64,000 nt of DNA from assembly GCA_000306725.1 (NCBI GenBank), contig CP003083.1:2194042-2258041 (forward strand), written 5' to 3'. Both the position numbers and the translations under genes were made by a program. The stretch is from Methanolobus psychrophilus R15 (GTDB taxonomy: Archaea > Halobacteriota > Methanosarcinia > Methanosarcinales > Methanosarcinaceae). Every line of letters begins with the position of its first letter. Position 1 is the first letter of the stretch. A model generated the notes under the pieces. The model worked only from the letters and a program-made list of their open reading frames with translations. It made no database searches and was not told where the DNA came from. Positions 3,499-36,746 of this stretch are shown in pieces.

Positions 3499-4218
3499 TC
3501 AAATCATCACGAACCGCAGCGTAAACTCCCCATCAGGTGTTATACAATACTCAACTTCCTTTTCGCTACCTTCTCGAAATTTTTTTTCAATTAACTTCCA
3601 TTCAATCAAGTCTGAAATCAAGGAATTAAAACCAGTTGGAGAAAGTGTTCTTTTAGTTTTACTGGCTGACTTAACAGGGGCATACTTGGCACATAAGTCA
3701 TGATACAACTTCTTTTTTGCATAATATTTTCCTGATTTACTATTAAGTATCTCAAGAATGGTCACTCTGTTTGGATTTTTCTTAAAATCAGCCATATGAA
3801 CTTTTGGTATGGGTATTAATCTGGAATCTTTGTCGATACCAACATGATAGGGAATTGCATCAATCCATAATGCCATCATAAAAAGGCCAATTGAAAGACC
3901 TTTAGTTCCACTAGATAAATTAAAGTAGTACTGAGCATCCCGATTTTTTTCATATATTGATAAAACTGCATCTCTTATATAGTCAAGAGTATCATCAACA
4001 ATTTTAACAACTTCTATGCCATCTTCAACAAATGGATTTGCTATTTCCTTCAGTTTATCAATTGAGTCCAGTATTTCTTTTTTTCCATAGTTATAAACAC
4101 GATCTTCTACAATCACATACAATTTAGTGACATAGGAAATATCATTGAGTACTGTAGGAAACGTCTCATGGATACTTTGCCCAGCACTCATAATGTGAAT
4201 TCGTTTCTTCTGACTCAT
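3499..4218 (-). CDS. CARF domain-winged HTH transcriptional regulator (Csa3/DUF6293-like)
   Basis: A 239-aa protein in two parts. Residues 5 to about 135 form a Rossmann-like CARF domain. It starts with strand IHIMSAG and ends with the signature NLSSGTKGLSIGLFMMAL at about 100-117, the nucleotide-binding loop of CARF proteins. Residues 150-235 look like a winged helix-turn-helix with a C-terminal wing (EVEYCITPDGEFTL). CARF domains bind cyclic oligoadenylates or related signals in type III CRISPR responses, and CARF-HTH proteins such as Csa3 act as regulators. No CRISPR array or interference gene is in the window. The gene is divergent from the viperin operon, with 106 bp between start codons, so regulation of that operon is the natural inference. 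The ligand is unknown. Confidence 0.78.
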   Translation of the reverse strand: MSQKKRIHIMSAGQSIHETFPTVLNDISYVTKLYVIVEDRVYNYGKKEILDSIDKLKEIANPFVEDGIEVVKIVDDTLDYIRDAVLSIYEKNRDAQYYFNLSSGTKGLSIGLFMMALWIDAIPYHVGIDKDSRLIPIPKVHMADFKKNPNRVTILEILNSKSGKYYAKKKLYHDLCAKYAPVKSASKTKRTLSPTGFNSLISDLIEWKLIEKKFREGSEKEVEYCITPDGEFTLRFVMI

Positions 4219-4324
4219 CCGATTCCTCGATTAAAATTTATCTAATTTAGATTAGATATATCTATTAATAAATAGTTTTTGTCTAAAAAATATTGATATT
4301 GAATGTTTTGAATAGTAAGAATTG
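4219..4324. promoter_or_regulatory. Divergent promoter with inverted-repeat candidate operator
   Basis: This is the spacer between the CARF regulator and the viperin operon. At 4240-4257 the sequence ATCTAATTTAGATTAGAT contains ATCTAA/TTAGAT inverted around one base plus a third TTAGAT half-site. An A+T-rich TATA-like stretch (TATTAATAAATAG, about 4262-4274) lies 50-60 bases before the viperin start. The arrangement suits a dimeric HTH regulator that controls itself and the divergent operon. The operator role is inferred. Confidence 0.5.
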
Positions 4325-5167
4325 ATGACTGGAAACAAAATTCAATCAGTAAACTGGCATATAACAGGGAAATGCAATTACAACTGTAAGTTCTGCTACG
4401 TTCAGAATCTCAATGCTGAAATTAAGGATATTGAGACAGCACATCAAATATTACATAAACTAAGGTACACCAAAACAGATCAACTCGATATACAGAAGAT
4501 CAATTTTGTTGGTGGGGAGCCATTCCTTCATCCTAATTTTTACGACCTCCTGTCAATGGCATATGATATGGGGTTTGTTACATCTATTGTTACAAACGGA
4601 TCATTTATCAACAAAGACAATATTGAAAAAATTTCCCGATATACTGATTGGATTGGTATTTCTGTAGACTCTATTGATAACCAGGTAGAAGCAGAACTCG
4701 GAAGAGGTAGAGGAAAACATGTAACTCACGCTCTGGAAGTTGCAGATCTTGTTCACGATCACGGGATTAAACTGAAAGTGAATACGACAGTTACAAGACC
4801 AACCTACAAAGAAGATATGCATAATCTGATAGAGACAATGGATCCGCATAGATGGAAGATATTCCAGATGCTCCACATCGAAGGCCAGAACGATTCATGT
4901 GTCAGTGATTTATCCATAACCGATCAACAATTTGAATCTTTCAGAATACGTCATCAAGATATTCGCCTGCAGAACAATATAAAACCGACTTTTGAAACAA
5001 ACGATGACATGATTGGTTCATATTTAATTCTCGATCCAGCAGGGAAGGTATTGTCCAACGGTGATGGAAAATATACTCCATTTGAACTTGATCAATTCCT
5101 CTTAAATCCTGCTGTTGTAGTTAATTCAAGGAAATATGTAGGAAGGGAGGGTGTCTATGCCTGGTAA
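4325..5167 (+). CDS. Prokaryotic viperin (radical SAM 3'-deoxy-3',4'-didehydro-NTP synthase)
   Basis: A 280-aa radical SAM enzyme. The CxxxCxxC cluster motif is CNYNCKFC near residue 17, followed by INFVGGEPFL (the GGEP SAM site), SIVTNGS, DSIDNQVEAELGRG, KLKVNTTVTR and PHRWKIFQML, then SYLILDPAGK and a C-terminal GREGVYAW. These match animal viperin block by block (NFSGGEPFL, SIVSNGS, RWKVFQCLLIEGEN, DSYLILDE, GGKYIW), which separates it from generic radical SAM proteins such as MoaA. Viperins convert nucleoside triphosphates to chain-terminating ddhNTPs that stop viral polymerases. Length and ends agree with known pVips. ATG 4325 is preferred over the in-frame TTG at 4322. It is first gene of the operon, and the kinase gene overlaps its end by 11 bp. 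Confidence 0.88.
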   Translation: MTGNKIQSVNWHITGKCNYNCKFCYVQNLNAEIKDIETAHQILHKLRYTKTDQLDIQKINFVGGEPFLHPNFYDLLSMAYDMGFVTSIVTNGSFINKDNIEKISRYTDWIGISVDSIDNQVEAELGRGRGKHVTHALEVADLVHDHGIKLKVNTTVTRPTYKEDMHNLIETMDPHRWKIFQMLHIEGQNDSCVSDLSITDQQFESFRIRHQDIRLQNNIKPTFETNDDMIGSYLILDPAGKVLSNGDGKYTPFELDQFLLNPAVVVNSRKYVGREGVYAW

Positions 5168-5735
5168 AGATAAAACCTCTCCGTCCTTTCGAAGATTTTG
5201 TTTTACAGGAGTAAGGGGTGTAGGGAAGAGTACTGTAATAAACCGAATACGTTCAAGCGTTCCAGACATTAAATTCGTTTCTGGATCAGATATGCTTCAG
5301 GGTATGATGGGAGAGGACTACAAGCATTTTGAATATCTTCCTGAAGAGGAAAAGTATGCTTTAAGAATAAAGCTCAATAGCATGCTGCAGATTATACAGA
5401 AGGATGCTGCAAAAGATCTGGTTGTTGATTCACATCTTACAGTTTTCAATCTAAACACAGATGTAATTGATACTATCTTTACTGAGAAAGACTTTGAATT
5501 TTATACAGACATCATCTTGCTGGATTCTTATCCTGAGAAGATCTACGACCACCGTGCAAGAGATTTTTCTAAAAAACGGATTGTTGACAAGGAGATCATC
5601 GCAAAAGAACTTGATACCGAAAAGCAAGAAGCATTCCGAGTTGCTTCTGAATATAATATCAGACTGCATGTCATTGAGATGGGAGATGAAGCTGATGAGA
5701 AGATGATCAGTGTGTTATATGGTGGTATGGGATGA
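5157..5735 (+). CDS. P-loop nucleotide kinase-like protein, viperin partner
   Basis: A 192-aa kinase of the NMP-kinase/thymidylate kinase-like P-loop type. Walker A is GVRGVGKST at about residues 18-26. A DxxH pair (VVDSHLTVFNL, about 88-98) fits the kinase-family Walker B/LID region, and a basic stretch (DHRARDFSKKR) could be the lid. Nucleotide kinases are recurrent neighbours of prokaryotic viperins and probably supply or phosphorylate the nucleotide that viperin modifies. ATG 5157 follows a GGGAGGG ribosome site at the right distance. The gene overlaps viperin by 11 bp, and its own stop overlaps the next start (ATGA), so the three genes are translationally coupled. Which nucleotide it uses cannot be read from sequence. 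Confidence 0.72.
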   Translation: MPGKDKTSPSFRRFCFTGVRGVGKSTVINRIRSSVPDIKFVSGSDMLQGMMGEDYKHFEYLPEEEKYALRIKLNSMLQIIQKDAAKDLVVDSHLTVFNLNTDVIDTIFTEKDFEFYTDIILLDSYPEKIYDHRARDFSKKRIVDKEIIAKELDTEKQEAFRVASEYNIRLHVIEMGDEADEKMISVLYGGMG

Positions 5736-6484
5736 TTAACCTGACAGAAGGATTTCTTCCAGGCAGAGTTATTGATGTTGTAAATTGGCACATCACACCA
5801 AGATGCGGGTACAATTGCAAGTTTTGTAATGTTCACAATTGCTACTTTGAAATTCGAGATATGAAATATGCAAAGAAGAATCTAAAAAAATTGAAAGAAT
5901 TGGAGGAGCAGGATGTTCATATAAATACTTTGAACATTGCAGGAGGAGAGCCCTTACTTCATCCTAATTTATTTGACCTTTTGAAGATGGGAAATGAAGA
6001 AGGCTTCAATCTCTGGATAACAACCAATGGCACTCTGCTGAATGAAACGAATATTGATCAGCTGAGCAACTATATTGATGGGATCTCAGTTTCCGTAGAT
6101 TGTATCAGTAATATCAAGCAAAAAAAGATCGGTCGAGGTTATGGAACGCATGTGTCAGAGATGCTCAATGTTTCAGATCGGATACATGATACAGGGATCA
6201 AGCTTGGTGTGAACACTTTAGTTACAAAACTAAACTATAAAGACGATCTTCATGCCCTTCTTCATAGGCTTGACCCATATCAATGGAACGTTTATCAAAC
6301 CCTCCCTTGCCTTTATCAAAATAACTATCTAAGGAGCATAGAGGTCAATGAGAATGATTTTTACCTTTTTTTAAGAAGACATAGCCATTTAAGGTTTGGG
6401 CCATGCAATGAGCCTACTTTTTGGTCAAAAAACGACATGCAGAAAAAATACTATTTTCTGGTAGATGGGACAATAAGGATTTGA
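5732..6484 (+). CDS. Second viperin-like radical SAM protein, shortened C-terminus
   Basis: A 250-aa paralogue of the first viperin. It keeps C25, C29 and C32 (CGYNCKFC), NIAGGEPLLHP, TTNGT, the DxIxNxxxxxIGRGxGTH stretch, KLGVNTLVTK and PYQWNVYQTL. It stops at YFLVDGTIRI, about where the first viperin reads SYLILDPAGK, so roughly 35-40 C-terminal residues are missing, including the GxEGVYxW end that in viperin helps close the active site. DNA after the stop does not continue the frame, so this looks like a natural end or an old truncation. The start overlaps the kinase stop as ATGA. It may be a partner subunit, a paralogue with a different substrate, or a decaying copy. Confidence 0.75.
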   Translation: MINLTEGFLPGRVIDVVNWHITPRCGYNCKFCNVHNCYFEIRDMKYAKKNLKKLKELEEQDVHINTLNIAGGEPLLHPNLFDLLKMGNEEGFNLWITTNGTLLNETNIDQLSNYIDGISVSVDCISNIKQKKIGRGYGTHVSEMLNVSDRIHDTGIKLGVNTLVTKLNYKDDLHALLHRLDPYQWNVYQTLPCLYQNNYLRSIEVNENDFYLFLRRHSHLRFGPCNEPTFWSKNDMQKKYYFLVDGTIRI

Positions 6485-6548
6485 GAAGTTTATTAATAAC
6501 TAAATATAATAACATTAGATATATACATGTACTAAAGGGGACAAACAA

Positions 6549-9500
6549 ATGATAGATTCAATTTCAACAACCGATTTTTTCAACCTGAACTTACGCGAGA
6601 GATTTTTTTTAGAAAGAGAACTAGAGATTTTGCCTTATCATTTGAGAAAAAACAACACCAACAAAAATCAAAGGATACTTGAAGATCTTTTCATAAACAA
6701 GGTCCTCAGCGATCCACATTTTAGCATGTATGTTTCTAAACAAATAGAAGGCAGTGACTTTGATCTCAAAGACGTTTTTGCGTACTTAAGTTATGTTTTG
6801 TTAGAAAATTATCTCTCCAAGAGTCCCTTGTTGAACAACATAGAAGTAAAAGAAAGAAACTTGAATTTAGAACAAGCTCTCGATAAAAGAAACTTTGACT
6901 ATTTCTCACTAAAAAGTAGTACGTACTACCACGACAAAAGGGATTTCAAAAAAGCTATAGATGCTCTTCCTTTCAGAGGAGAAGGAATAAACAATCGTTG
7001 GTACAAAGGTTCATTGCTCAACTGGGATGCGGTAATGGAGATTCCTTATTATTCTTTAAGATCTGAGGAAAAAGTTGAATATCAGATGTTTGAAACAACT
7101 CATGCCCTTGAGAGTCTTGAAAATTTAGCAGATTTTCGCGATGAACATAGGTTCATATTTGAAAATATAGAGTCTAATTTTAGATATGATAGACAAACCG
7201 AATATATGAACATAAACGCTCCATTGTTTGGTTTTCTAAATAGTAGTACTGGTTTTATTTCATCTATCAAAAACCTACTTGAAAAATATGGATATCACAG
7301 GGACTTTAGTAATGATGAAATTGGGAAATACTTCAAAATATATACGGATTCTATTTTAATCGGACAGTTCTATTGGTTTGTATCTCTTAATCAGAATCAA
7401 ATGCTTTCGTTATTAAACGCATATTATGATGAACAGGGTCTATCATTTAAAGAGGAAAACCTTAACATCTTCCCAAATTCTAAACTGGTTCATTACTTTG
7501 TTTATTCCAATGTAAGGTGTATATGTGATAAGAAAGACTATAATGAAGCCATTAATCTCCTGAATAAACTAAGTGAATCAACAGATGATATGTTCCTTAA
7601 ACACCTGTGCTTTTTATGGACAGGGGATATCTATCAGGAAAGAAACGATTTTGATTTTGCTGCAAGTGCTTTTAATAAGGCCTATGAACTTGCTAGGGAC
7701 AATGATCTAACAAGAGATGATGAACTCCGTTTTTTGTATGAAATAGTATCAGGTAAGAAATCTCGAGTCGCTGAAGAACAAAATAAGAAATATGTCAATC
7801 TCTTGGAAGCCGCAGAAATGTATCACCATGCAGGCAATGTAAACAAATCAAATGAATTGATTCAACAATTGAATAGTGAACTGCACTCATTGTCTATTCC
7901 AAAACAGATGCATGTATGGTATGATATTTATCTTGACATATATTCTAGACAGGAAAAAGTCAGTGGGGCAATATTAAACAAGATCATTGAACTTGCAGGC
8001 ATATTTAACGATTCAAATTCAGATTATCTTGAAGAAGATATGGAAATAATAGATTGTTCTGTGTGGGATAAAAATGTCTCAAGAATGGACTGCATTGTAA
8101 AACACATAAACCACTTGAAAACGATTGCTGAAGAGAATAAAAAGAATTTAGACTCAAAAAATCTAGACCTTACTGCTGATTTATTTGTTATGAATCGTTT
8201 TTATGGTGGAAAATATCAATTCAATGAAAAAACAATCACTGGACAATTATTATCTTCAATGGGTTTAATTCGTGATGTCATTCACATTGATGATACGATT
8301 CCCTTTCTATTTGCTCCCAACAAACGCCTAGAAAAGATTGAAACAGCTATTTGCGAGATTGAATCAATGGACAAGGATGAACATGTAAATATTGCAAATC
8401 TTTATACTGGATCAATTTCTGACGTAGTACAAAGATTGAAACTAAAACAAGCTAGATGCTATTATCTTTTGAATAAAAATGATTCTGCACAGGACATTTT
8501 GAAAGATATTTTGGATACTGCAACTGAAGTTGGAGTTCAATATCATGCACATTGTGTGCTTGGAACCATTTTTGCAAAAAAGCAGATGGTTGAAGATTCA
8601 ATTGAACACTTTAAGCTAGCTATTGATAGTAAGTATTTATCAGAATCAGGCTCTGGAATAGTGATTGAATATTGTAGAGATGAACTTTTACAATCCGTTT
8701 CGAAAGAACTGTTTTTCGAAACCGTAGACTCTATAATTGATCACATAAACATGAAATCTAAAGATAGATCATATAAAGACAACGGTTTTTGGCAAGCAGT
8801 TGATCTATGCAATCAATTCGGACTTACCGAAGAGTCTCTGCATTTTATTGAACGTGGGCTTTTAGAAAAAGATGAATTTGTGAAGTCGAAGTTACTTGAA
8901 GAAAAAGCATATATAAAGTACCTTGATGGAAATCTAGATGCATCTCAGGAATTATTAGAGGTAGCAAAACAAGAAATTAAATCAGTTATTGTAATGAAAA
9001 ACACAGAATATCGTGAGCTCTGCTCTTCAATTTTCCATAAATCATCAATCATAGCGGGAAAACGGCTTGATTTCAAGAAAGCAGAAAAAGATATGGAGAT
9101 GGCAATTAAGATTTTGGAAAATTCTGCAGGTAAGCAAGAGAACTCTAAATTAAAATGTTATAGTAGATTAAAAGATGTATATCGCAATCTTTCCAAGAAT
9201 GTAATCGAATATAACAAAATAACGGATCCTGATGTAGTTACTATTCTTAAAACGGGGGAAATGATTGTTTCAGATTTGTTAAATGGTGCACGCAACAGAA
9301 AAATAGATTATTCCCTAGCACTTGCAGAATATGGTAAAGGTCTAGAAACTGCACTAGATAAAGTTATAACAGCAGCTCTTAGAGAACATATATTTTCGCT
9401 ACATACACAAAAACCTATTGAAGATTCATACTTTAAAGGTGAAGGCAAGTTTAAAAATGAAGGTATATCATATGTTTCTCCATATGGATTAAAAGACGCA

Positions 9501-9794
9501 TTGAACTGCAATGAGCATAAAACAATCTCACTTGGTAGTTGGAAAGGTTTTATTCAAGATGAGATACTCAAGTCGAAAAGCTATAAAAACCCATATTTGA
9601 AAGATTCTTATGAGTTTTTACGAGGTTCCAAGTCAAAAGAAGAATGGAATGTAATAGCAGAAAATTGTGCGGTCGTTAAGGAATACCGCAATGGTTCTTC
9701 ACATTATGGAACAAAGAAGATAGACTATATTTTTGAAAAGAGAGCAGATACTATCAGAAAAATAAATGAAATTATCGATATACTTTATCCTTAG
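6549..9794 (+). CDS. Large TPR-repeat protein with C-terminal HEPN-like RNase motif
   Basis: A 1081-aa, mostly helical protein. The middle has TPR-like helix pairs (for example about residues 345-385, KHLCFLWTGDIYQERNDF onward, and about 635-700). The final 170 residues form a separate helical domain ending in EYRNGSSHYG, with R1047 and H1052: an RxxxxH motif preceded by a helix and with a polar residue after the arginine, as in HEPN ribonucleases. TPR-HEPN architectures occur in defence proteins, where the TPR part senses or scaffolds and HEPN cuts RNA. The N-terminal 300 residues match nothing I know. It lies 64 bp after the second viperin, with GGGG before ATG and an AT-rich spacer that could carry its own promoter. 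An RNase role is inferred from the motif alone. Confidence 0.6.
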   Translation: MIDSISTTDFFNLNLRERFFLERELEILPYHLRKNNTNKNQRILEDLFINKVLSDPHFSMYVSKQIEGSDFDLKDVFAYLSYVLLENYLSKSPLLNNIEVKERNLNLEQALDKRNFDYFSLKSSTYYHDKRDFKKAIDALPFRGEGINNRWYKGSLLNWDAVMEIPYYSLRSEEKVEYQMFETTHALESLENLADFRDEHRFIFENIESNFRYDRQTEYMNINAPLFGFLNSSTGFISSIKNLLEKYGYHRDFSNDEIGKYFKIYTDSILIGQFYWFVSLNQNQMLSLLNAYYDEQGLSFKEENLNIFPNSKLVHYFVYSNVRCICDKKDYNEAINLLNKLSESTDDMFLKHLCFLWTGDIYQERNDFDFAASAFNKAYELARDNDLTRDDELRFLYEIVSGKKSRVAEEQNKKYVNLLEAAEMYHHAGNVNKSNELIQQLNSELHSLSIPKQMHVWYDIYLDIYSRQEKVSGAILNKIIELAGIFNDSNSDYLEEDMEIIDCSVWDKNVSRMDCIVKHINHLKTIAEENKKNLDSKNLDLTADLFVMNRFYGGKYQFNEKTITGQLLSSMGLIRDVIHIDDTIPFLFAPNKRLEKIETAICEIESMDKDEHVNIANLYTGSISDVVQRLKLKQARCYYLLNKNDSAQDILKDILDTATEVGVQYHAHCVLGTIFAKKQMVEDSIEHFKLAIDSKYLSESGSGIVIEYCRDELLQSVSKELFFETVDSIIDHINMKSKDRSYKDNGFWQAVDLCNQFGLTEESLHFIERGLLEKDEFVKSKLLEEKAYIKYLDGNLDASQELLEVAKQEIKSVIVMKNTEYRELCSSIFHKSSIIAGKRLDFKKAEKDMEMAIKILENSAGKQENSKLKCYSRLKDVYRNLSKNVIEYNKITDPDVVTILKTGEMIVSDLLNGARNRKIDYSLALAEYGKGLETALDKVITAALREHIFSLHTQKPIEDSYFKGEGKFKNEGISYVSPYGLKDALNCNEHKTISLGSWKGFIQDEILKSKSYKNPYLKDSYEFLRGSKSKEEWNVIAENCAVVKEYRNGSSHYGTKKIDYIFEKRADTIRKINEIIDILYP

Positions 9795-22728: not shown

Positions 22729-24243
22729 TCACTTTTCAGTTATTAAACACGCTTTCAGTTTATCGTTCAGTGCCTCCATCTTTACCTGGATATCATTTTC
22801 ATATGCCTGCAGCCTGCCGTAAAGAACATCTGCTGGCTCGTAGTCGGTTTCTTCGTAATTCATCTCTGTGTACTTGGATATGCTCAGGTCGTATCCATTT
22901 CCACGGATCTCATCTCCAGGAACAAAGAAACACTTGCCAGTACGGTCAGAAAAGTCCTGATTTTCCCTGTCATGGAACTTTTCGATGATATCAGGTATAT
23001 CGCCCTTACCATCGACGAAGGTCCGTTTGTCGTCAAGTGTGAACCCGTCAGACTCCATGCGGTAGAACCAGACCTTTTCAGTGGGTTCACCTTTGGTAAA
23101 GACAAGTATTCCCGTAGATACTCCTGCATACGGCTTGAAGACACCAGAAGGCATGGATATGACCGCATCCAGCCTGCACTTGTCAAGGATCATCTCACGA
23201 ACGCCTCTATGAGCTTTACTGCTTCCGAACAGGACACCATCAGGAACAATGACGGCACAGCGTCCACCAATCTGCAAGAGTTCAAACATCTGCTCAATGT
23301 AGAGCAATTCGGTCTTGGTAGTGGTGACCTTGAACTTGCCTTTGATCTCTTCCTCGTTGATACTGCCCTTGAAAGGCGGATTTGCCAGTACCAGGGTGTA
23401 TTTACCCTTTTCCTTGTCACATTCGACCAGGCTGTTACGGTGGGATATGTGCGGATTCTTGATACCGTGCATCATCAGGTTCATCATAGCAATACGGACC
23501 ATTGTCTGATCAATGTCGGAACCGTATAGTGTGTTGTTGAGTAACGTTTCCCATTCATCTTTGCTCAGTTTATCTCCCACAAAATTGTGTTCGAATCCCT
23601 GTTCATCGACCTCAATGAATTTGGGTGATGTATATGTTTTCAATATATGCAGCAATGCTGAAATGATGAAACCAGCAGTACCACATGCAGGATCGCATAT
23701 CTTGTCCGACCGTAGGTTCGGTAAGCGCAGCATTAGTTTCCTTATATGGTTTGGGGTCCTGAACTGACCGTTCTTACCTGATGTTCTAAGCTCACTCAGG
23801 ATATATTCGTAGATGTCTCCCTGAGCATCCCTGTTCTGTTCAAGAATATGGAGATCTTCTATGATCTTTACGGCCTCAGAGAGGAGTGCACCCGTTGGGA
23901 TTACGAATGAAGCATCTTCCATGTACTTGGAATAAAGGGTGTTGTCCCCGTTCAGTTTCTTCAGGAAAGGGAACACAATAGTACGTACATGTTCGAGCAT
24001 GTCGTTGGCTGGATATTCTTTCCAGATGGACCATTTGCAATTCTCATGACCTTCAAGGATGGACTGGTAGCTTTCACCCCTCAGCCGAGCCTTATTCATG
24101 CCCTGAATATCTTCGTCCTCGATCCTCTTCATGAAGATAAGGTACGATATCTGTTCGATGGCTGTAAGCGGATTGGAGATACCATTGCTCCAGAAACGGT
24201 CCCACAGCTTGTTAATGTCGGATTTCATCTTAGGATTTAGCAT
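22729..24243 (-). CDS. hsdM: Type I restriction-modification DNA methyltransferase (HsdM)
   Basis: A 504-aa full-length type I methyltransferase subunit. The N-terminal HsdM helical domain opens with INKLWDRFWSNGISNPLTAIEQ. The SAM-binding motif is DPACGTAGFI (about 199-208) and the catalytic NPPF is at about 305-308. It methylates adenine in DNA when joined by HsdS. Here no complete HsdS and no HsdR are in the window: only a fragment of the HsdS C-terminus precedes it. It may therefore be an orphan methyltransferase or the remains of a broken system. The start codon overlaps the end of the fragment's frame. Confidence 0.85.
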   Translation of the reverse strand: MLNPKMKSDINKLWDRFWSNGISNPLTAIEQISYLIFMKRIEDEDIQGMNKARLRGESYQSILEGHENCKWSIWKEYPANDMLEHVRTIVFPFLKKLNGDNTLYSKYMEDASFVIPTGALLSEAVKIIEDLHILEQNRDAQGDIYEYILSELRTSGKNGQFRTPNHIRKLMLRLPNLRSDKICDPACGTAGFIISALLHILKTYTSPKFIEVDEQGFEHNFVGDKLSKDEWETLLNNTLYGSDIDQTMVRIAMMNLMMHGIKNPHISHRNSLVECDKEKGKYTLVLANPPFKGSINEEEIKGKFKVTTTKTELLYIEQMFELLQIGGRCAVIVPDGVLFGSSKAHRGVREMILDKCRLDAVISMPSGVFKPYAGVSTGILVFTKGEPTEKVWFYRMESDGFTLDDKRTFVDGKGDIPDIIEKFHDRENQDFSDRTGKCFFVPGDEIRGNGYDLSISKYTEMNYEETDYEPADVLYGRLQAYENDIQVKMEALNDKLKACLITEK

Positions 24244-24688: not shown

Positions 24689-26269
24689 TTAAGCATCGTG
24701 AAAAGTCAAAAGGTAATAGCGGCGGGGTACCAGGCCGCCGCCACGGGGATAAATTGGGCAATCTGCGCCAACAAAAACCAGTTTATCCAGGTCCACATAG
24801 CCCTTATTGAACAAACCGCGAACGTTGATCTGGATCTTTCGGGCGCGTGTCCTACCCACGAAGTCCAAAGACGCAAGCTGCGATTTGTCGGATCCTGCCT
24901 GTTTCACCCAATAATTAGGAAGTTCTGGATTACTAATAGCAAGTTCAAACGTGCCCCCCTTTGCTCCATGGAACGTGTCACACGCACGTGGATGGAATGG
25001 ATCATCGTGGTTGTTACGCATGATTGTACCCATACGGGCTACCTGGGCATTGGTAGGGGCAATAAATGCAGCCTTCTCAATCTCTTTGCCGCTAAAGGAA
25101 TTCATGATATCGATAAACCCACGTTCGCCCCTGACGTTGATTACTTCATCATCATTGCATTCCAATGGGTTAATACCATCTACATTATAAGGTGCGCGGG
25201 TATACGGAATAAGCCATTTAGCGTCTGCCCATATATTCTGTCCATATCTGTAAATTGTATCCAGACAATCCGTTCTATACCGTGGGAACTCCAATAACTC
25301 GTCGGGTGAGGTGCCCTGAAATGAAAATACGCATTGTGCGACGTCCCCGACTATATATGCTCGAGTAACAGTAGGACTGGCAATCCAGTTCGAAACGATC
25401 ATCCACTGCAGCGGGGTAAGATCATTAGCTTCATCGATTATAATTATATTCTCGTCGGGTGTGTAGCCTTCCACTGCGACTTCTACCAGTGTATCAGTAT
25501 AATCAATGAACCCATGTTCACTCTTCCAATTCTCATATGCAATAGCATGTTTGATAAAAGCATTTACAGACAGACCATGTTCACTACTACGTGTCATGTC
25601 ATTAGTATACGACTTGTATGTAGGCTCATGTCCACCATGATCTTTAATGATACTGCGATAAATACTTTTAATACCATCTACTGACGGAACGCATTGTTTA
25701 TCTGAAGCGCGCCAATCGAACACTTCACCCATATAGCTATTGCGGATACGATTCCATAATTGAACTGAAGCACCAAATTCAGTCTTTTTTAGCCGATCAC
25801 AGACATCGTCGGGTACTTTCATCAATTCTTTTAACTCCTGCCTGGAATACTTGCGATCATATGCCATTTCCACAAGATAGTCCAGATCTAACTTGTCTTT
25901 TTTGGCATATAATCCCATCAACACTTTTTCCTTGATGTAACTACCATCAGGATCACCTGTCAATTGTGCACATTGGGATTGAATGGTCTGACCATCTTCA
26001 CCATATTCGGATACAGCCATATTGGAATGTGAAAATACGCGGCATCTGTTTCCGTTTGCTACTTCATCATAGAATGTTTCTCGGACCCATGTCGTCTTTC
26101 CAGTTCCCGCTGTACCATACACAACCTGGGTTTTTGCACCGACAATATCAGTCGAACCATAGTCGATTTCAGTATTCTCACGTTTAAGGTTACTGTTCTC
26201 ACATAAAAGGTTACACTTATCGCGTATAGGGGTACGTTTCTTGGTTTGCATTGTATCACCGTTATTCAA
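24689..26269 (-). CDS. Superfamily 1 (UvrD/Rep-type) DNA helicase, plasmid/virus-like
   Basis: A 526-aa helicase. Motif I is YGTAGTGKTTW (about 52-62), motif Ia is FSHSNMAV, motif II is IIIIDEANDLT, motif III is YIVGDVAQCVFSFQG, motif IV/V FHGAKGGTFELA and motif VI FVGRTRARKI. Compact size and a short 2B region distinguish it from the chromosomal UvrD. Next to the repeat-rich spacer and the 412-aa gene, it looks like the replication helicase of an integrated plasmid or virus. Start is taken at 26269; ATG 26251 is also possible. It is read away from the origin-like spacer. Confidence 0.8.
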   Translation of the reverse strand: MNNGDTMQTKKRTPIRDKCNLLCENSNLKRENTEIDYGSTDIVGAKTQVVYGTAGTGKTTWVRETFYDEVANGNRCRVFSHSNMAVSEYGEDGQTIQSQCAQLTGDPDGSYIKEKVLMGLYAKKDKLDLDYLVEMAYDRKYSRQELKELMKVPDDVCDRLKKTEFGASVQLWNRIRNSYMGEVFDWRASDKQCVPSVDGIKSIYRSIIKDHGGHEPTYKSYTNDMTRSSEHGLSVNAFIKHAIAYENWKSEHGFIDYTDTLVEVAVEGYTPDENIIIIDEANDLTPLQWMIVSNWIASPTVTRAYIVGDVAQCVFSFQGTSPDELLEFPRYRTDCLDTIYRYGQNIWADAKWLIPYTRAPYNVDGINPLECNDDEVINVRGERGFIDIMNSFSGKEIEKAAFIAPTNAQVARMGTIMRNNHDDPFHPRACDTFHGAKGGTFELAISNPELPNYWVKQAGSDKSQLASLDFVGRTRARKIQINVRGLFNKGYVDLDKLVFVGADCPIYPRGGGLVPRRYYLLTFHDA

Positions 26270-31457: not shown

Positions 31458-34400
31458 ATGATAGAAAAAAAACATTTATTAAAAAAAGTTAGCTCGACTC
31501 TGTTCGTAAGTGCTATGATTGTGCTAATGTTCACAACTATGAGCGCATCGGCAGACGGAAACTATTACGATGCGACCAATCATACAATGAATATTGTGTC
31601 GTTTGCTACGGGTTCACTTTCGGCCAGTATAGAATCCGCACATTCTACTCCCAGTGAGATAAACACATTGAGGATCACAGGCGGTACATTAAATCCAGTG
31701 GATACGCTCTGGATAAAGTCCAATTTAGTCAACCTCGGGACGTTTGAGGTTATCGAGGATGGAGCATTTTTTGCAAATGCAGTACCATCAACTATGTTTG
31801 AATATAACGGGAATATTGTTAATGTAACTTTTACTACAGTTACCAAGGTCGAATATTCGGCGTTTATGTCTTGTGGGGCATTGGAATATGTAAATTTACC
31901 TCTGGTTGAAACAATAGAGTTCAACAGTTTTAGTGAGTGTATAAGTTTGTCAACGATTATTGCTCCCAACGTGAAGACAATCGGTTCGAGTGCTTTCTTG
32001 GGTTCTAAACTTGAAACTATAGATTTTCCAGAGCTCATTTCTGTAGCAAATGGTGCCTTTTATCATTGTAATTGGCTTGCCAATGTAAGCATGCCAAATG
32101 TGAGTTCCATTGGAGGAATGGCATTTAATGGTTGTAATAATCTTACTGATGTATATATGCCAAATGTGACGACAATCGATTCGAGTGCTTTCAGTGGTTC
32201 TAAACTTGAAACTATAGATGTGCCAGAGCTCATTTCTGTAGGATTTGGTGCATTTTTCAATTGTGATTGGCTTGTCAATGTAAGCATGCCAAATGTAACT
32301 ACGATTGGTGGTTTTGCATTTGATGATTGTAATAATCTTACTGATGTATATATGCCAAAAGTTACTACATTTGGAAGCGGTGTTTTTGATGGGTGTTCTC
32401 AATTGGATTCATTGACCCTTGGTAGCACTATTCCGTCAGTAGCTGATTCCGCTGTATTCAATGGCCTGCCAGCAACCCGTACACTATACGTACCCAACGA
32501 AAACATCAGTTCATATAAGGAATATGACGACGGGGATGATCCAGCAAGTGATTTATGGTATGGGTGGATTGTGTGTGGAATAGATGAACTCTATTACGTA
32601 ACATATGATAATAATGGAGCAATTGACGGATTTGTACCCGTTGATGGGTCATCCTATCTGAATGGTACTAATGTTACATTGCCAGGTAAAGGCGATCTAC
32701 TCAAAATCGGCTATGAGTTCTCTGGATGGAATACTCTAGCTGATGGTAACGGGACCAACTATTTGCCTGGTGAAGAGTTCACAATTTCAGGCAATACTAC
32801 CTTGTACGCAAACTGGACCGCAATCTACTTCGCAATATACCATGGAACTGGTGCCATAAGCGGGAGTGCGCCAGTTGACTTGAACATATACCACCTGGGC
32901 GATGAGGTTACCGTCAGTGACCAGAATACCCTTGTCAAAACGGGATATGTATTCGATGGATGGACCACCATGCTAGACGGAACTGGAAACAGCTACACTC
33001 CAGGTGATACGTTCAACATTGATGGCACTGTAAATCTCTACGCACAGTGGATTTGTTTCGTAACATATGACGACAATAACGCAACCGAAGGATCTTTACC
33101 TGTCGATGTGGAAGAATATTCTGAAGGTGACATTGTTAACATAATGGGTCCAAGTGATCTCCTGAAAGATGGCCATGAGTTTTCTGGATGGAACACTGCG
33201 GATGATGGTAGTGGGACCAACTATGTCCAAAATGATACATTTACAATTTTAGGTAACACTACCCTGTATGCAAACTGGACAGCAGTTTATTCCGTAACAT
33301 ACAATGCAAATGGTGCTACAAGTGGCGATGTACATGTTGATTCAACGGTATATTACCTGAATGATGAAGTTACCGTAAAGAACGAAAATACTCTTGTCAG
33401 GACAGGATATGCATTCGATGGATGGAACACAGCTGCCGATGGAACTGGTACAGATTATGCATCACTTGAGACCTTTGAAATAACTGAAGATGTAAACCTG
33501 TATGCACAGTGGATCTGTTTTGTAACGTATAATAATAATGGTGCTACGAGCGGAACCGTACCAGTTGACCAGGGCAATTATTCTGAGGATGACTCTGTTA
33601 TCGTATTAGGACAAAGCGATCTCATGAACACTGGACATGAGTTCATGGGATGGAACACCGCATCTGATGGTACTGGAACCAACTATGTACTTGATGATAC
33701 GTTTACAATTGTATGCAATACTACTCTGTACGCAAACTGGGCACTCAATTATTCCGTGACGTATAATGGCAATGGTGAAACGGGCGGTGCTGTACCTATC
33801 GATGGAAATGTCTACCATATAAATGATTCTGCGTTTGTAGAAAATCAAAATACTCTTGTCAGAACAGGCCACGTATTTGCTGGATGGAATAGTGCAGCTG
33901 ATGGAACTGGCTCAGAACACGCGCCATTTGATGCATTTGTGATAACAGGTGATGTAACTCTCTATGCACAATGGATATGTTATATAACATATGATGGCAA
34001 TGATGCAACTGAAGGAACTGCGCCTGCGGATGTGTCACCATATCCGACTGGTACTAATGTTACATTACCAGGTGAGGGCGATCTCCTGAAAACTGGCCAT
34101 ATATTCACTGGATGGAACACGGCAGTCGATGGTAGTGGAGACAACTACATGCCTGGTGTCGAGTTCACAATGACAGGTAACACTACTTTCTATGCGAACT
34201 GGACCGCAGTTTATTCTGTGATATATGATGTAAATGGCGCAACCGAATGGACTCTGCCCATCGATCCAAATAACCCGCATGTAACTGGTACCAATGTTAC
34301 TGTAATGGATGGTACACTTGCCAGAACAGACTATGTGTTTGATGGATGGAATACTGCAGCAGATGGAACTGGAACCAGCTACAATCCAGCCGAGGAGTTC

Positions 34401-36746
34401 ACCATAACCAGTGATGTAACTCTCTATGCGCAATGGATATGTTTTGTGACATATGATGACAATGGTGCAACCAGTGGATCCGCTCCATCTGATCTATACG
34501 GTTATTCCGAGAACGAATCTGTTACTGTACTGGGTCAAAACGATCTGCTGAAGATGGACCATGAATTCATGGGATGGAACACTGCTGCAGATGGCAATGG
34601 GACCAACTATGTACAAGACACTTCATTTGCAGCATCAGGCAATGTAACATTGTATGCAAATTGGATGCTCAACTGTTCAGTGACATACCATGCCAATGGA
34701 GATGTGACGGGCTCGGTGCCTGTGGATACAGTTGTCTATCACCCAGGCGATGAAGTTACCGTGAAAACAAATGATACCATTGTAAGAGATGGTTATGTAT
34801 TTGCAGGATGGAACACTCTAGCCGATGGTAATGGAACCAGCTACAATCCAACAGAGACATTCAATATAGAAAATGATGTGGATCTCTATGCTCAATGGTT
34901 AAAGATTTGTTATGTGACATATTATCCAAACAATGCAGATGACGGCGATGTTCCAGTAGATAACGACAGTCCGTATATCGAAGGTGACATGGTTACTGTA
35001 AAGGACCAAAATACCCTCATTAGAAACGAACACGGATTTGATGGCTGGAATACCATAGCAAACGGAAGCGGAACTGCATATCAATCTGGAGAAATGTTCG
35101 GAATATCTGGCAATGTCAGCCTGTATGCACAATGGAATGTCAATTATTATGACGCAGGAACACTTACAGTCATTGACTTTACCACAGGTTCTATTTCATC
35201 AGAAATTGTACACGTTCAGCCAGCACTTGCTGATATAACAACGTTGAAGGTTAAGAACGGAACATTGGATATTGTCGATATTCACTGGATACGTGATAAC
35301 CTGACCAGTTTGGAAACGTTTGAAGTAACAGAGAATGGCGCATTTGTCAATGATACATTGCCCAATTCAGCATTCCATAACAACTTATTGGGACATGCGA
35401 ACATAACTAATGTAACTCTTACCACGGTTAATGTGATAGGCGATCATGCATTTAATTCCTGTTACAACCTGACTACCCTGGACATACCAAATGTAATATC
35501 CATTGGCGATTATTCAGTTACATCATGCTATTCATTGATCAATATTACGGCACCAGAAGTCGTTAATATTGGAGCATTTGCATTTGAAGATTGCTATCGA
35601 CTTGAATCGATCGATATGCCAAACCTGACCATTGCATCTGATGGTGCATTTTACGACACTGGCTTTACCGAGGTTTCGCTGCCAAAATTAACTAATGTCA
35701 GCAGGTTTATGTTTGTCAGTTGTCACAACTTGACAAGCGCATTTTTACCAAATGTTACCAACATTGGTAGATATGCTTTCCACGACTGCACCCAACTTGA
35801 TTCACTTACACTTGGTAGTTCCATACCTATCGTCGATAATTCCAGCATGGATATAGATTCTGTTGACTATGTTGCCGATGACAGGATCCATGTTTCTGGT
35901 ATCAGTGGTGGTACGTTTTACGGATTGCCGACAAATCGTATCCTGCATGTACCAGATGCTGCTATAAGTTCTTATAAGGCGTATGACGATGGCGATGATC
36001 CAGCCACAGATCTCTGGTATGGGTGGACAGTATATGAAGAACCAGCCGACAGATCACCAAGTGGTTCAGGTGGGTACTACATTGCCAATCCAGGCACAGA
36101 CCCTGACAATTTAGAAAGCTCAGCTACACGCACTCTTCGTATATCTGCAGGCGTAAATGCAAACTACGACTTTTCAGCAAGTGAAGGTCCAGTGTTTGGC
36201 ATAAGCTTTGTGCCAATGAAGAATGTAGGCACTGTAGTAACCAGGGTTGATGTTCTTTCCAATACACCATCGGATGTTACAGAATCATCAGGTATGTCGT
36301 ACAAGATGATGAACATCGAGGTTGGTCGCGCGGGAACCATTTCTTCATCCAACGCAAAGGATATTATTATCAATTTCAAGGTATCTAAAACATGGATCGA
36401 AGAGAATAACATCGATATTTCAACTATTCGCTTATCCAGGTATCACGCAGATCAGTGGAATGATCTTCCGACTACCCAGGAAAGCGAAGACGATGAGTAT
36501 ATCTACTTCTCTGCTGAAACGCCAGGATTCTCTGTTTTCGAGATCAAAGGAGATATCATTTCTACGTCCGATGAAAAGCCTGGACAGATTCCAGTAGCGG
36601 AGCCCAACTCAGATGTTGAAGATGTACCAATCGAGAATACAAAAGACAAGAACAATGGATATATCTTCCTCGTGCTTGGTATTCTGGTTGTCATCGGAGC
36701 AGCTGGATACATCTATTGGACGAAGCAGAATAGGGGCAGAAAGTAA
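31458..36746 (+). CDS. Giant secreted surface protein: BspA-like LRR, eleven InlB-type repeats, PGF-pre-PGF-like domain, C-terminal anchor
   Basis: A 1762-aa secreted protein. Residues 1-33 are a signal peptide (KKVSSTLFVSAMIVLMF). It has a BspA/LRR_5-type block (about 60-365, with repeats of the form IGSSAFLGSKLETIDFPELI), then eleven tandem repeats of about 75 residues, each ending LYANW or LYAQW, like Listeria-Bacteroides (Flg_new/InlB B) repeats (about 375-1225). A second LRR block follows (about 1235-1540), then a domain ending PGFSVFEIKGD (about 1560-1690) typical of the methanogen PGF-pre-PGF domain, and last a transmembrane helix with a basic tail (about 1738-1762). The PGF-CTERM anchor motif is absent. 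An adhesin or surface-layer role is likely. The gene is monocistronic. Confidence 0.85.
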   Translation: MIEKKHLLKKVSSTLFVSAMIVLMFTTMSASADGNYYDATNHTMNIVSFATGSLSASIESAHSTPSEINTLRITGGTLNPVDTLWIKSNLVNLGTFEVIEDGAFFANAVPSTMFEYNGNIVNVTFTTVTKVEYSAFMSCGALEYVNLPLVETIEFNSFSECISLSTIIAPNVKTIGSSAFLGSKLETIDFPELISVANGAFYHCNWLANVSMPNVSSIGGMAFNGCNNLTDVYMPNVTTIDSSAFSGSKLETIDVPELISVGFGAFFNCDWLVNVSMPNVTTIGGFAFDDCNNLTDVYMPKVTTFGSGVFDGCSQLDSLTLGSTIPSVADSAVFNGLPATRTLYVPNENISSYKEYDDGDDPASDLWYGWIVCGIDELYYVTYDNNGAIDGFVPVDGSSYLNGTNVTLPGKGDLLKIGYEFSGWNTLADGNGTNYLPGEEFTISGNTTLYANWTAIYFAIYHGTGAISGSAPVDLNIYHLGDEVTVSDQNTLVKTGYVFDGWTTMLDGTGNSYTPGDTFNIDGTVNLYAQWICFVTYDDNNATEGSLPVDVEEYSEGDIVNIMGPSDLLKDGHEFSGWNTADDGSGTNYVQNDTFTILGNTTLYANWTAVYSVTYNANGATSGDVHVDSTVYYLNDEVTVKNENTLVRTGYAFDGWNTAADGTGTDYASLETFEITEDVNLYAQWICFVTYNNNGATSGTVPVDQGNYSEDDSVIVLGQSDLMNTGHEFMGWNTASDGTGTNYVLDDTFTIVCNTTLYANWALNYSVTYNGNGETGGAVPIDGNVYHINDSAFVENQNTLVRTGHVFAGWNSAADGTGSEHAPFDAFVITGDVTLYAQWICYITYDGNDATEGTAPADVSPYPTGTNVTLPGEGDLLKTGHIFTGWNTAVDGSGDNYMPGVEFTMTGNTTFYANWTAVYSVIYDVNGATEWTLPIDPNNPHVTGTNVTVMDGTLARTDYVFDGWNTAADGTGTSYNPAEEFTITSDVTLYAQWICFVTYDDNGATSGSAPSDLYGYSENESVTVLGQNDLLKMDHEFMGWNTAADGNGTNYVQDTSFAASGNVTLYANWMLNCSVTYHANGDVTGSVPVDTVVYHPGDEVTVKTNDTIVRDGYVFAGWNTLADGNGTSYNPTETFNIENDVDLYAQWLKICYVTYYPNNADDGDVPVDNDSPYIEGDMVTVKDQNTLIRNEHGFDGWNTIANGSGTAYQSGEMFGISGNVSLYAQWNVNYYDAGTLTVIDFTTGSISSEIVHVQPALADITTLKVKNGTLDIVDIHWIRDNLTSLETFEVTENGAFVNDTLPNSAFHNNLLGHANITNVTLTTVNVIGDHAFNSCYNLTTLDIPNVISIGDYSVTSCYSLINITAPEVVNIGAFAFEDCYRLESIDMPNLTIASDGAFYDTGFTEVSLPKLTNVSRFMFVSCHNLTSAFLPNVTNIGRYAFHDCTQLDSLTLGSSIPIVDNSSMDIDSVDYVADDRIHVSGISGGTFYGLPTNRILHVPDAAISSYKAYDDGDDPATDLWYGWTVYEEPADRSPSGSGGYYIANPGTDPDNLESSATRTLRISAGVNANYDFSASEGPVFGISFVPMKNVGTVVTRVDVLSNTPSDVTESSGMSYKMMNIEVGRAGTISSSNAKDIIINFKVSKTWIEENNIDISTIRLSRYHADQWNDLPTTQESEDDEYIYFSAETPGFSVFEIKGDIISTSDEKPGQIPVAEPNSDVEDVPIENTKDKNNGYIFLVLGILVVIGAAGYIYWTKQNRGRK

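What the first reader, a model, noticed from the sequence alone, without database searches (positions are those of the whole stretch)
3499..9794. CARF-regulated viperin-kinase-viperin-TPR/HEPN locus
A CARF-wHTH regulator is divergent from a coupled operon of viperin, NMP-kinase-like protein and a second viperin, followed by a 1081-aa TPR protein with an RxxxxH motif. Viperins make chain-terminating nucleotides; CARF proteins sense cyclic oligonucleotides or similar; HEPN proteins cut RNA. Seen in sequence: order, overlaps and motifs. Known: viperin and kinase are neighbours in prokaryotic pVip loci. Inferred: the CARF factor turns the operon on or off in response to infection, and the TPR/HEPN protein adds an RNA-cutting arm. 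I know of no described system with this exact combination.
Basis: partly seen in the sequence, partly recalled or inferred. Interest (0 to 1): 0.95.

Follow-up and report, generated by a model that had tools for sequence, protein, structure and literature searches.

The report
CARF-switched archaeal viperin–HEPN defence operon
An archaeal gene cluster that recurs across its phylum sets a gene for viperin (viperins make antiviral nucleotides) beside a regulator gene of CRISPR type and often a gene for a predicted RNA-cutting protein; the regulator likely senses a sign of virus infection, and in most of the genomes checked the CRISPR enzyme that usually makes such signals was not found.

Summary

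The unit recurs. CARF sits beside viperin at 27 of 37 viperin loci: 14 of 20 in the class, 13 of 17 outside it in an even phylum sample. TPR sits at 20 of 37, always with CARF; RNxxxH is kept in all 20.

Only 3 of 25 genomes with the pair hold a clear Cas10, and the window's complete genome matches neither Cas10 model nor mCpol; its one SMODS match is the CCA enzyme. VIP2 is a conserved clade with changed viperin positions and no C-terminal tail, seen only with one TPR type (3 of 3 against 0 of 8 genome loci).

Viperin+TPR is already a reported archaeal system type and RNase genes beside bacterial viperins are published. Verdict: new variant of a known kind.

The parts
3499..4218 (-). Csa3-like CARF-wHTH regulator (239 aa); CARF about residues 5-138, winged helix about 141-239
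4219..4321 (.). 103-bp divergent promoter region between CARF and VIP1, AT-rich; presumed operator. Its best inverted repeat is not above shuffles (13 of 100 reach it)
4322..5167 (+). VIP1, full-length prokaryotic viperin (281 aa from TTG; ATG at 4325); CxxxCxxC at about 4373-4396; keeps the viperin C-terminal tail
5151..5735 (+). viperin-associated nucleotide kinase (VakA, adenylate-kinase-like P-loop; 194 aa from GTG, ATG at 5157)
5732..6484 (+). VIP2, tail-less viperin-like paralogue (250 aa), clade A; CxxxCxxC at about 5804-5827
6549..9794 (+). TPR repeat protein (1081 aa), TPR-A type
9186..9791 (+). C-terminal helical, HEPN-like domain of the TPR protein (residues 880-1081); RNxxxH codons at about 9687-9704

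Best explanation
The locus encodes a CARF-wHTH regulator with a predicted Csa3-like fold, divergent from overlapping viperin, kinase and second-viperin genes followed by a TPR protein with an RNxxxH motif, and it likely works as an inducible antiviral system in which the regulator, on binding a nucleotide-type signal of infection, would switch the operon on. Shown by calls: the genes, their order and overlaps, the recurrence of CARF+viperin and CARF+viperin+TPR across the phylum, the invariant RNxxxH, the lack of Cas10 and mCpol matches in the window's genome, and the altered, tail-less VIP2 clade. Inferred: VIP1 makes ddh-nucleotide chain terminators, the kinase feeds it nucleotides or phosphorylates the product, the TPR-HEPN protein cuts RNA as a second arm, VIP2 works together with the TPR-A protein, and the CARF ligand is not type III CRISPR cOA but another nucleotide, such as c-di-AMP, a virus-borne or virus-altered nucleotide, or a viperin product.
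Confidence: 0.55

Rival explanations
1. The CARF regulator answers to ordinary type III CRISPR cyclic oligoadenylate, so the operon is simply a CRISPR-induced pVip locus.
For: The predicted fold is Csa3-like and Csa3 binds cA4 (PMC8699464, passages); 3 of 25 genomes with the pair have a clear Cas10 and two more a Cas10-like palm match.
Against: The window's one-contig genome (99.97% complete) has no Cas10 match, and 20 of 25 genomes with the pair have neither a clear Cas10 nor a palm match; Csa3 motif 1 is not kept.
Confidence: 0.15
2. The regulator is a plain repressor or autoregulator with no infection ligand; linkage only reflects joint transfer of a defence island, and the TPR protein is a scaffold or sensor without nuclease activity.
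For: Adjacent genes share history by linkage alone; HEPN fold evidence is weak and 16 of 20 slices match no HEPN family.
Against: RNxxxH is kept in 19 of 19 aligned TPR proteins and the D920/K930/E933 positions in 18 of 19; the CARF-viperin pair recurs inside and outside the class, divergent in 25 of 27.
Confidence: 0.2
3. VIP2 is a decaying duplicate of VIP1 with no function.
For: It lacks the tail and several viperin-typical residues; in L088 the second-slot gene has lost CxxxCxxC altogether.
Against: 10 clade-A sequences average 76% column identity with 90 invariant columns, CxxxCxxC included, though some are close relatives; 13 of 13 proteins of clades A and B keep CxxxCxxC; the 11 clade-A members are 247-273 aa long; clade A was seen only with TPR-A.
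Confidence: 0.1

Closest known systems
Prokaryotic viperin (pVip) systems with nucleotide kinase (Bernheim 2021, recalled, not held; PADLOC pVip/VakA)
   Same: VIP1 and the kinase match the pVip and VakA models; overlapping genes
   Different: CARF regulator, TPR-HEPN-like partner and tail-less second viperin in one locus
PADLOC archaeal 'viperin + TPR protein' system type (PMC12988326, passages)
   Same: Viperin plus a protein of the PDLC02907 TPR family
   Different: The passages seen name no regulator, HEPN motif, second viperin or missing Cas10; Csa3 occurs once in that paper, in its reference list
Bacterial pVips with adjacent HicA or RelE RNase genes (PMC10865869, passages)
   Same: A viperin gene beside a (here predicted) RNase gene
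   Different: HEPN-like domain on a TPR protein instead of HicA/RelE; archaeal; with a CARF regulator. That paper asks how the RNases are regulated
Csa3 CARF-wHTH transcription factors (2wte; cA4-bound 6wxq, 6w11)
   Same: Same two-domain fold over residues 5-238
   Different: 12% identity, different pocket motif 1, viperin beside it, Cas10 mostly not found; the PADLOC type I-A Csa3 model scores only 0.0013 on the relative in L094
MM_0565 of Methanosarcina mazei (PMC7465815, passages)
   Same: CARF-wHTH regulator of a methanogen with Csa3-like modelled fold that binds promoters
   Different: Linked to type I-B CRISPR and a casposon; sequence relation not tested here
HEPN ribonucleases (Pfam Apea-like, MAE_28990-like, RiboL-PSP, Swt1-like; RnlA and Csm6, recalled as HEPN)
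   Same: Helical domain with invariant RNxxxH; weak family and fold matches
   Different: Carried by a long TPR protein; no match over a Pfam gathering score

Membership tests
Prokaryotic viperin (VIP1) | Match over the NF038283 cut-off and CxxxCxxC | tested here: met
   272 bits against 180; C18/C22/C25
Prokaryotic viperin (VIP1) | C-terminal viperin tail | tested here: met
   Aligns to the end with a solved viperin-like chain (query 8-281 to 28-303 of 9dfw)
Prokaryotic viperin (VIP1) | Makes ddh-nucleotide | not testable with these tools
   Needs enzyme assay
Prokaryotic viperin (VIP2) | Match over the NF038283 cut-off | tested here: not met
   178.0 bits against 180; 177.3 in the genome search
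Prokaryotic viperin (VIP2) | C-terminal tail and residues kept in other viperins | tested here: not met
   Tail positions K271 and Y272 absent in 11 of 11 clade-A members; K152 to G/A 11 of 11; S88 to W 11 of 11
Csa3-like CARF-wHTH regulator | CARF Rossmann domain plus C-terminal winged helix | tested here: met
Csa3 (CRISPR) | cA4 pocket motif 1 T-h-G-F-(N/D)-E-X4-R | tested here: not met
   Conserved SAGxxxHxTF instead (motif from PMC8699464)
Csa3 (CRISPR) | cOA-making Cas10 in the genome | tested here: not met
   No Csm1 or Cmr2 match in the window's genome
Csa3 (CRISPR) | cas genes beside it | not tested
   Neighbours were only partly family-scanned
PADLOC viperin + TPR system | pVip and PDLC02907 TPR genes in one locus | tested here: met
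HEPN ribonuclease | RxxxxH motif conserved in the family | tested here: met
   RNxxxH in 16 of 16 and in 20 of 20 locus TPR proteins
HEPN ribonuclease | HEPN helical fold | tested here: inconclusive
HEPN ribonuclease | RNA cleavage | not testable with these tools
   Needs enzyme assay
Viperin-associated kinase | Match to VakA / P-loop kinase | tested here: met
   VakA 8.5e-24; AAA_17 over cut-off

The most novel reading that the evidence does not exclude
A CARF transcription factor has left CRISPR and become the dedicated sensor of viperin immunity: it reads a non-CRISPR nucleotide, possibly the viperin product itself or RNA ends made from it, closing a self-amplifying loop, while the tail-less VIP2 is a neofunctionalised viperin that works with, or switches, the TPR-HEPN RNase. 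The second viperin slot was filled more than once, and in clades A and B each time the tail was lost.
Probability: 0.2. Interest if true: 0.9.

Novelty: new variant of a known kind. Interest (0 to 1): 0.68.

Why it matters
How viperin loci and the RNases beside them are regulated is put as an open question in PMC10865869 (passage), and no listing or passage I saw describes a CARF regulator of viperin. Here a protein with the fold of a known ligand-binding regulator sits beside viperin in 27 of 37 loci, so the inducing signal can be sought directly with a ligand panel. If that ligand is not type III cOA, CARF sensing reaches beyond CRISPR in these archaea. The locus would also join chain-terminator immunity to a predicted HEPN RNase, and it holds a viperin paralogue that has lost viperin-typical residues but is conserved.

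Tried and rejected
Unique to this genome: rejected, the unit recurs. CARF as a common unlinked regulator: rejected for the close clade; of 38 hits in the phylum sample, 20 have E <= 1e-60 and 19 of these are beside viperin; held against me: 16 of 29 outside-class hits, all in family f17 and all at 5.9e-57 or weaker, are not. VIP2 as a frameshift artefact: thought unlikely, the short form is shared by its relatives and only 64 nt separate it from the TPR gene. Own-genome CD-NTase: the one SMODS hit is the CCA enzyme; the other ~450-480-aa SMODS frames were not checked one by one; G073 has a real CBASS cyclase (L086) but no CARF hit. Viral copies: none found with the VIP2 and CARF alignments. 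PDB sequence search with the CARF profile gave only chance hits, so the Csa3 likeness rests on the model and on PADLOC models. PDB sequence search with the TPR C-terminal profile gave no HEPN chain. TPR-type relatives outside viperin loci: two Patescibacteria contigs carry weak relatives of the C-terminus, with no viperin, CARF or kinase match on the DNA held. Operator motif: no significant palindrome in the window; an AT-rich palindrome in close relatives L066, L068, L073 (0 of 100 shuffles; 8 of 100 in L067 and L070) and a different one in L077. Published nucleotide-binding residues of viperin could not be read, so VIP2's changes are stated only against 28 other viperins, and no role in NTP binding is claimed. 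The TPR tree was a quick one and warned of long branches meeting. The VIP2-A/TPR-A Fisher value (1/165) was worked out by hand.
Full report
1. What is in the window. One search finds the five open frames exactly as described, with a 17-nt overlap of VIP1 and kinase, a 4-nt overlap of kinase and VIP2, and 64 nt before the TPR gene. Family scans give viperin for VIP1 (272 bits, cut-off 180) and, just under the cut-off, for VIP2 (178 bits), VakA for the kinase, the PADLOC TPR model for the long protein and PADLOC Csa3 (PDLC02909) for the regulator. The window lies at 2194042-2258041 of a one-contig, 99.97% complete genome. Named relatives of the TPR protein are in Methanolobus and Methanosarcina.

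3. Conservation in the class. In 237 genomes, viperin occurs in 17 (20 loci), the CARF family in 15 (16 hits) and the TPR family in 10 (11 hits). Gene maps of 21 fetched stretches, which cover 19 of the 20 viperin loci and the two CARF hits without viperin, the window being the twentieth viperin locus, show CARF divergent from viperin at 14 of 20, and TPR at 11 of 20 (plus a shortened TPR-like frame in L079), all 11 with CARF; in L073 the TPR gene is inverted. Of the 16 CARF hits 14 are beside viperin; L080 faces a type I restriction operon and L081 is a fragment. A second viperin stands at 6 of 20 loci. The kinase is intact at 11 of the 14 CARF loci and a remnant at one (L068); in L076 it stands on the far side of the CARF gene.

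4. Conservation in the phylum. In an even draw of 392 genomes there are, outside the class, 17 viperin loci in 15 genomes; 13 have CARF next door (recount), 11 of them divergent. Maps of these 17 show TPR at 9, all with CARF. No kinase match (E <= 1e-4 to five kinase queries) and no second viperin with an intact CxxxCxxC was seen there; L088 has a 247-aa viperin-like neighbour without it. Totals: CARF 27 of 37, TPR 20 of 37. Against: 16 of the 29 CARF hits outside the class lie without viperin, all in one family and all at 5.9e-57 or weaker; at E <= 1e-60, 19 of 20 are beside viperin. Two Patescibacteria contigs encode weak relatives of the TPR C-terminus without viperin or CARF on the DNA held, so that domain is not confined to this system.

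5. Co-evolution. Within the class, identity-based distances correlate for CARF-VIP1 (r 0.55, 14 loci), CARF-KIN (0.76, 12) and VIP1-KIN (0.77, 12), each p 0.0002 by permutation, while TPR distances do not follow (r 0.02 to 0.15). Over the phylum all three pairs correlate (CARF-VIP 0.70, 27 loci; CARF-TPR 0.54 and VIP-TPR 0.45, 19 loci; L075, whose TPR match fell under my score limit, was dropped from the TPR rows). Shared descent and linkage contribute to these values. The window's VIP1 is 84% identical to L065's but its TPR only 23%, so the TPR end has likely been exchanged: a core (regulator, viperin, kinase) plus a changeable cassette. Other followers of a CARF-linked viperin include a DUF5677 protein (L077) and an SF1-type helicase (L092).

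6. VIP2. The tree (42 rows; L072 and P0025, both under 200 aa, left out) puts VIP2 in a clade of 11 (support 100/99) on a long stem. The second viperins of L067 and L070 form another long-branched pair (100/100) inside a different group, so the slot was filled at least twice; that of L076 keeps its tail. Clade-A members are 247-252 aa (273 in L074) and lack the tail that ends VIP1 and solved viperins. Of positions kept in at least 90% of 28 other viperins, K152 is G or A in 11 of 11, S88 is W in 11 of 11, W110 is changed in 11 of 11, and GGEP is GGDP in 10 of 11 (the window keeps E); tail positions K271 and Y272 are absent in 11 of 11. CxxxCxxC is kept in 13 of 13 proteins of clades A and B; 10 clade-A members, some of them close kin, average 76% column identity. 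This looks like a changed but maintained radical-SAM protein. TPR proteins fall into two groups, TPR-A and TPR-B (a quick tree with long-branch warnings); all 3 TPR-A genome loci carry clade-A VIP2 and none of the 8 TPR-B loci do, which suggests a VIP2-TPR partnership. Longest-contig lengths shared by three further TPR-A and VIP2 hits (13658, 21780, 23668) point the same way but were not opened.

8. Signal. In 19 class genomes Cas10 is over cut-off only in G046. The Csm1 model also gave weak matches in 11 other genomes; ten of these have only a match to positions 3-77 of 753 in short 217-238-aa frames, which I do not count; G185 has in addition a 513-aa Cas10-like palm protein. In 12 outside genomes with the pair, two have Cas10, G526 a palm-like match, and G403 and G353 only N-terminal matches (only the Csm1 model was run there). 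That makes 3 of 25 genomes with the pair with a clear Cas10 and 2 with a partial one; G090, one of the rest, is only 57% complete. The window's genome has no Cas10 or mCpol match, and its SMODS match is the CCA-adding enzyme. A c-di-AMP cyclase is present in all 19 class genomes, with or without the CARF gene. The usual CARF signal thus seems missing in most hosts checked.

9. Mechanism. Shown: genes, order, linkage, motif conservation, Cas10 not found; predicted: folds. Inferred: ligand binding, switching of the divergent promoter, ddh-nucleotide synthesis, kinase role, RNA cutting, VIP2 partnership.

10. Known and new. PMC12988326 (passages) says the viperin+TPR type was found exclusively in Archaea and cites Bernheim 2021, which is not held. 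PMC10865869 (passages) describes HicA and RelE RNase genes beside bacterial pVips and asks how they are regulated; PMC9122601 only names viperins in its introduction. PADLOC numbers its pVip, TPR, Csa3 and VakA models close together (PDLC02903-02911) and keeps a separate type I-A Csa3 model (PDLC01044), so its curators probably saw the neighbourhood; that is my inference. Text searches for viperin with Csa3, CARF or TPR listed no paper that, in listing or passages seen, describes a CARF regulator of viperin; most listed papers were not opened, and the library holds open-licence papers only. Hence new variant of a known kind. On checking I lowered interest from 0.70 to 0.68, because the viperin-RNase pairing has a published bacterial parallel.

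Noticed in passing
L088:7774-8517 (G256): A 247-aa viperin-like protein right behind the viperin has no CxxxCxxC (pVip 4.1e-19): a possible pseudo-enzyme viperin in a CARF locus.
   Followed up: partly
L080:8923-15152 (G111): The same CARF-wHTH family divergent from an operon with type I specificity and restriction subunits instead of viperin.
   Followed up: partly
L065 and L066 (G115; L066 matches L009, Methanolobus bombayensis): One genome with two separate CARF-viperin-kinase-TPR loci, one with VIP2 and TPR-A, one without VIP2 and with TPR-B.
   Followed up: partly
L077:6703-8445 (G046): Where other loci have TPR, a 580-aa DUF5677 protein follows the CARF-linked viperin; this genome has Cas10.
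   Followed up: partly
L092:5399-10423 and L101:10045-15105: Behind viperin a set of a 161/176-aa protein, a 990/971-aa SF1-type helicase and a 530/543-aa protein without Pfam match; L092 has the CARF, L101 a distant one.
   Followed up: partly
family f17 genomes (G383, G450, G470, G474, G516, G526, G534): CARF-wHTH genes, mostly several per genome, without viperin beside them; their neighbours were not looked at.
   Followed up: no
window 22729-24243 and 24689-26269: A type I restriction methylase (HsdM_N, N6_Mtase) and a UvrD-like helicase frame, so the locus seems to lie in a defence-rich region.
   Followed up: partly
window 31458-36746: A 1762-aa secreted-looking protein with many GWN-type repeat units, seen by eye; not tested.
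   Followed up: no
L066, L068, L073 intergenic regions: AT-rich palindrome in the CARF-viperin intergenic regions of close relatives (0 of 100 shuffles in these three), a candidate operator not seen in the window.
   Followed up: partly
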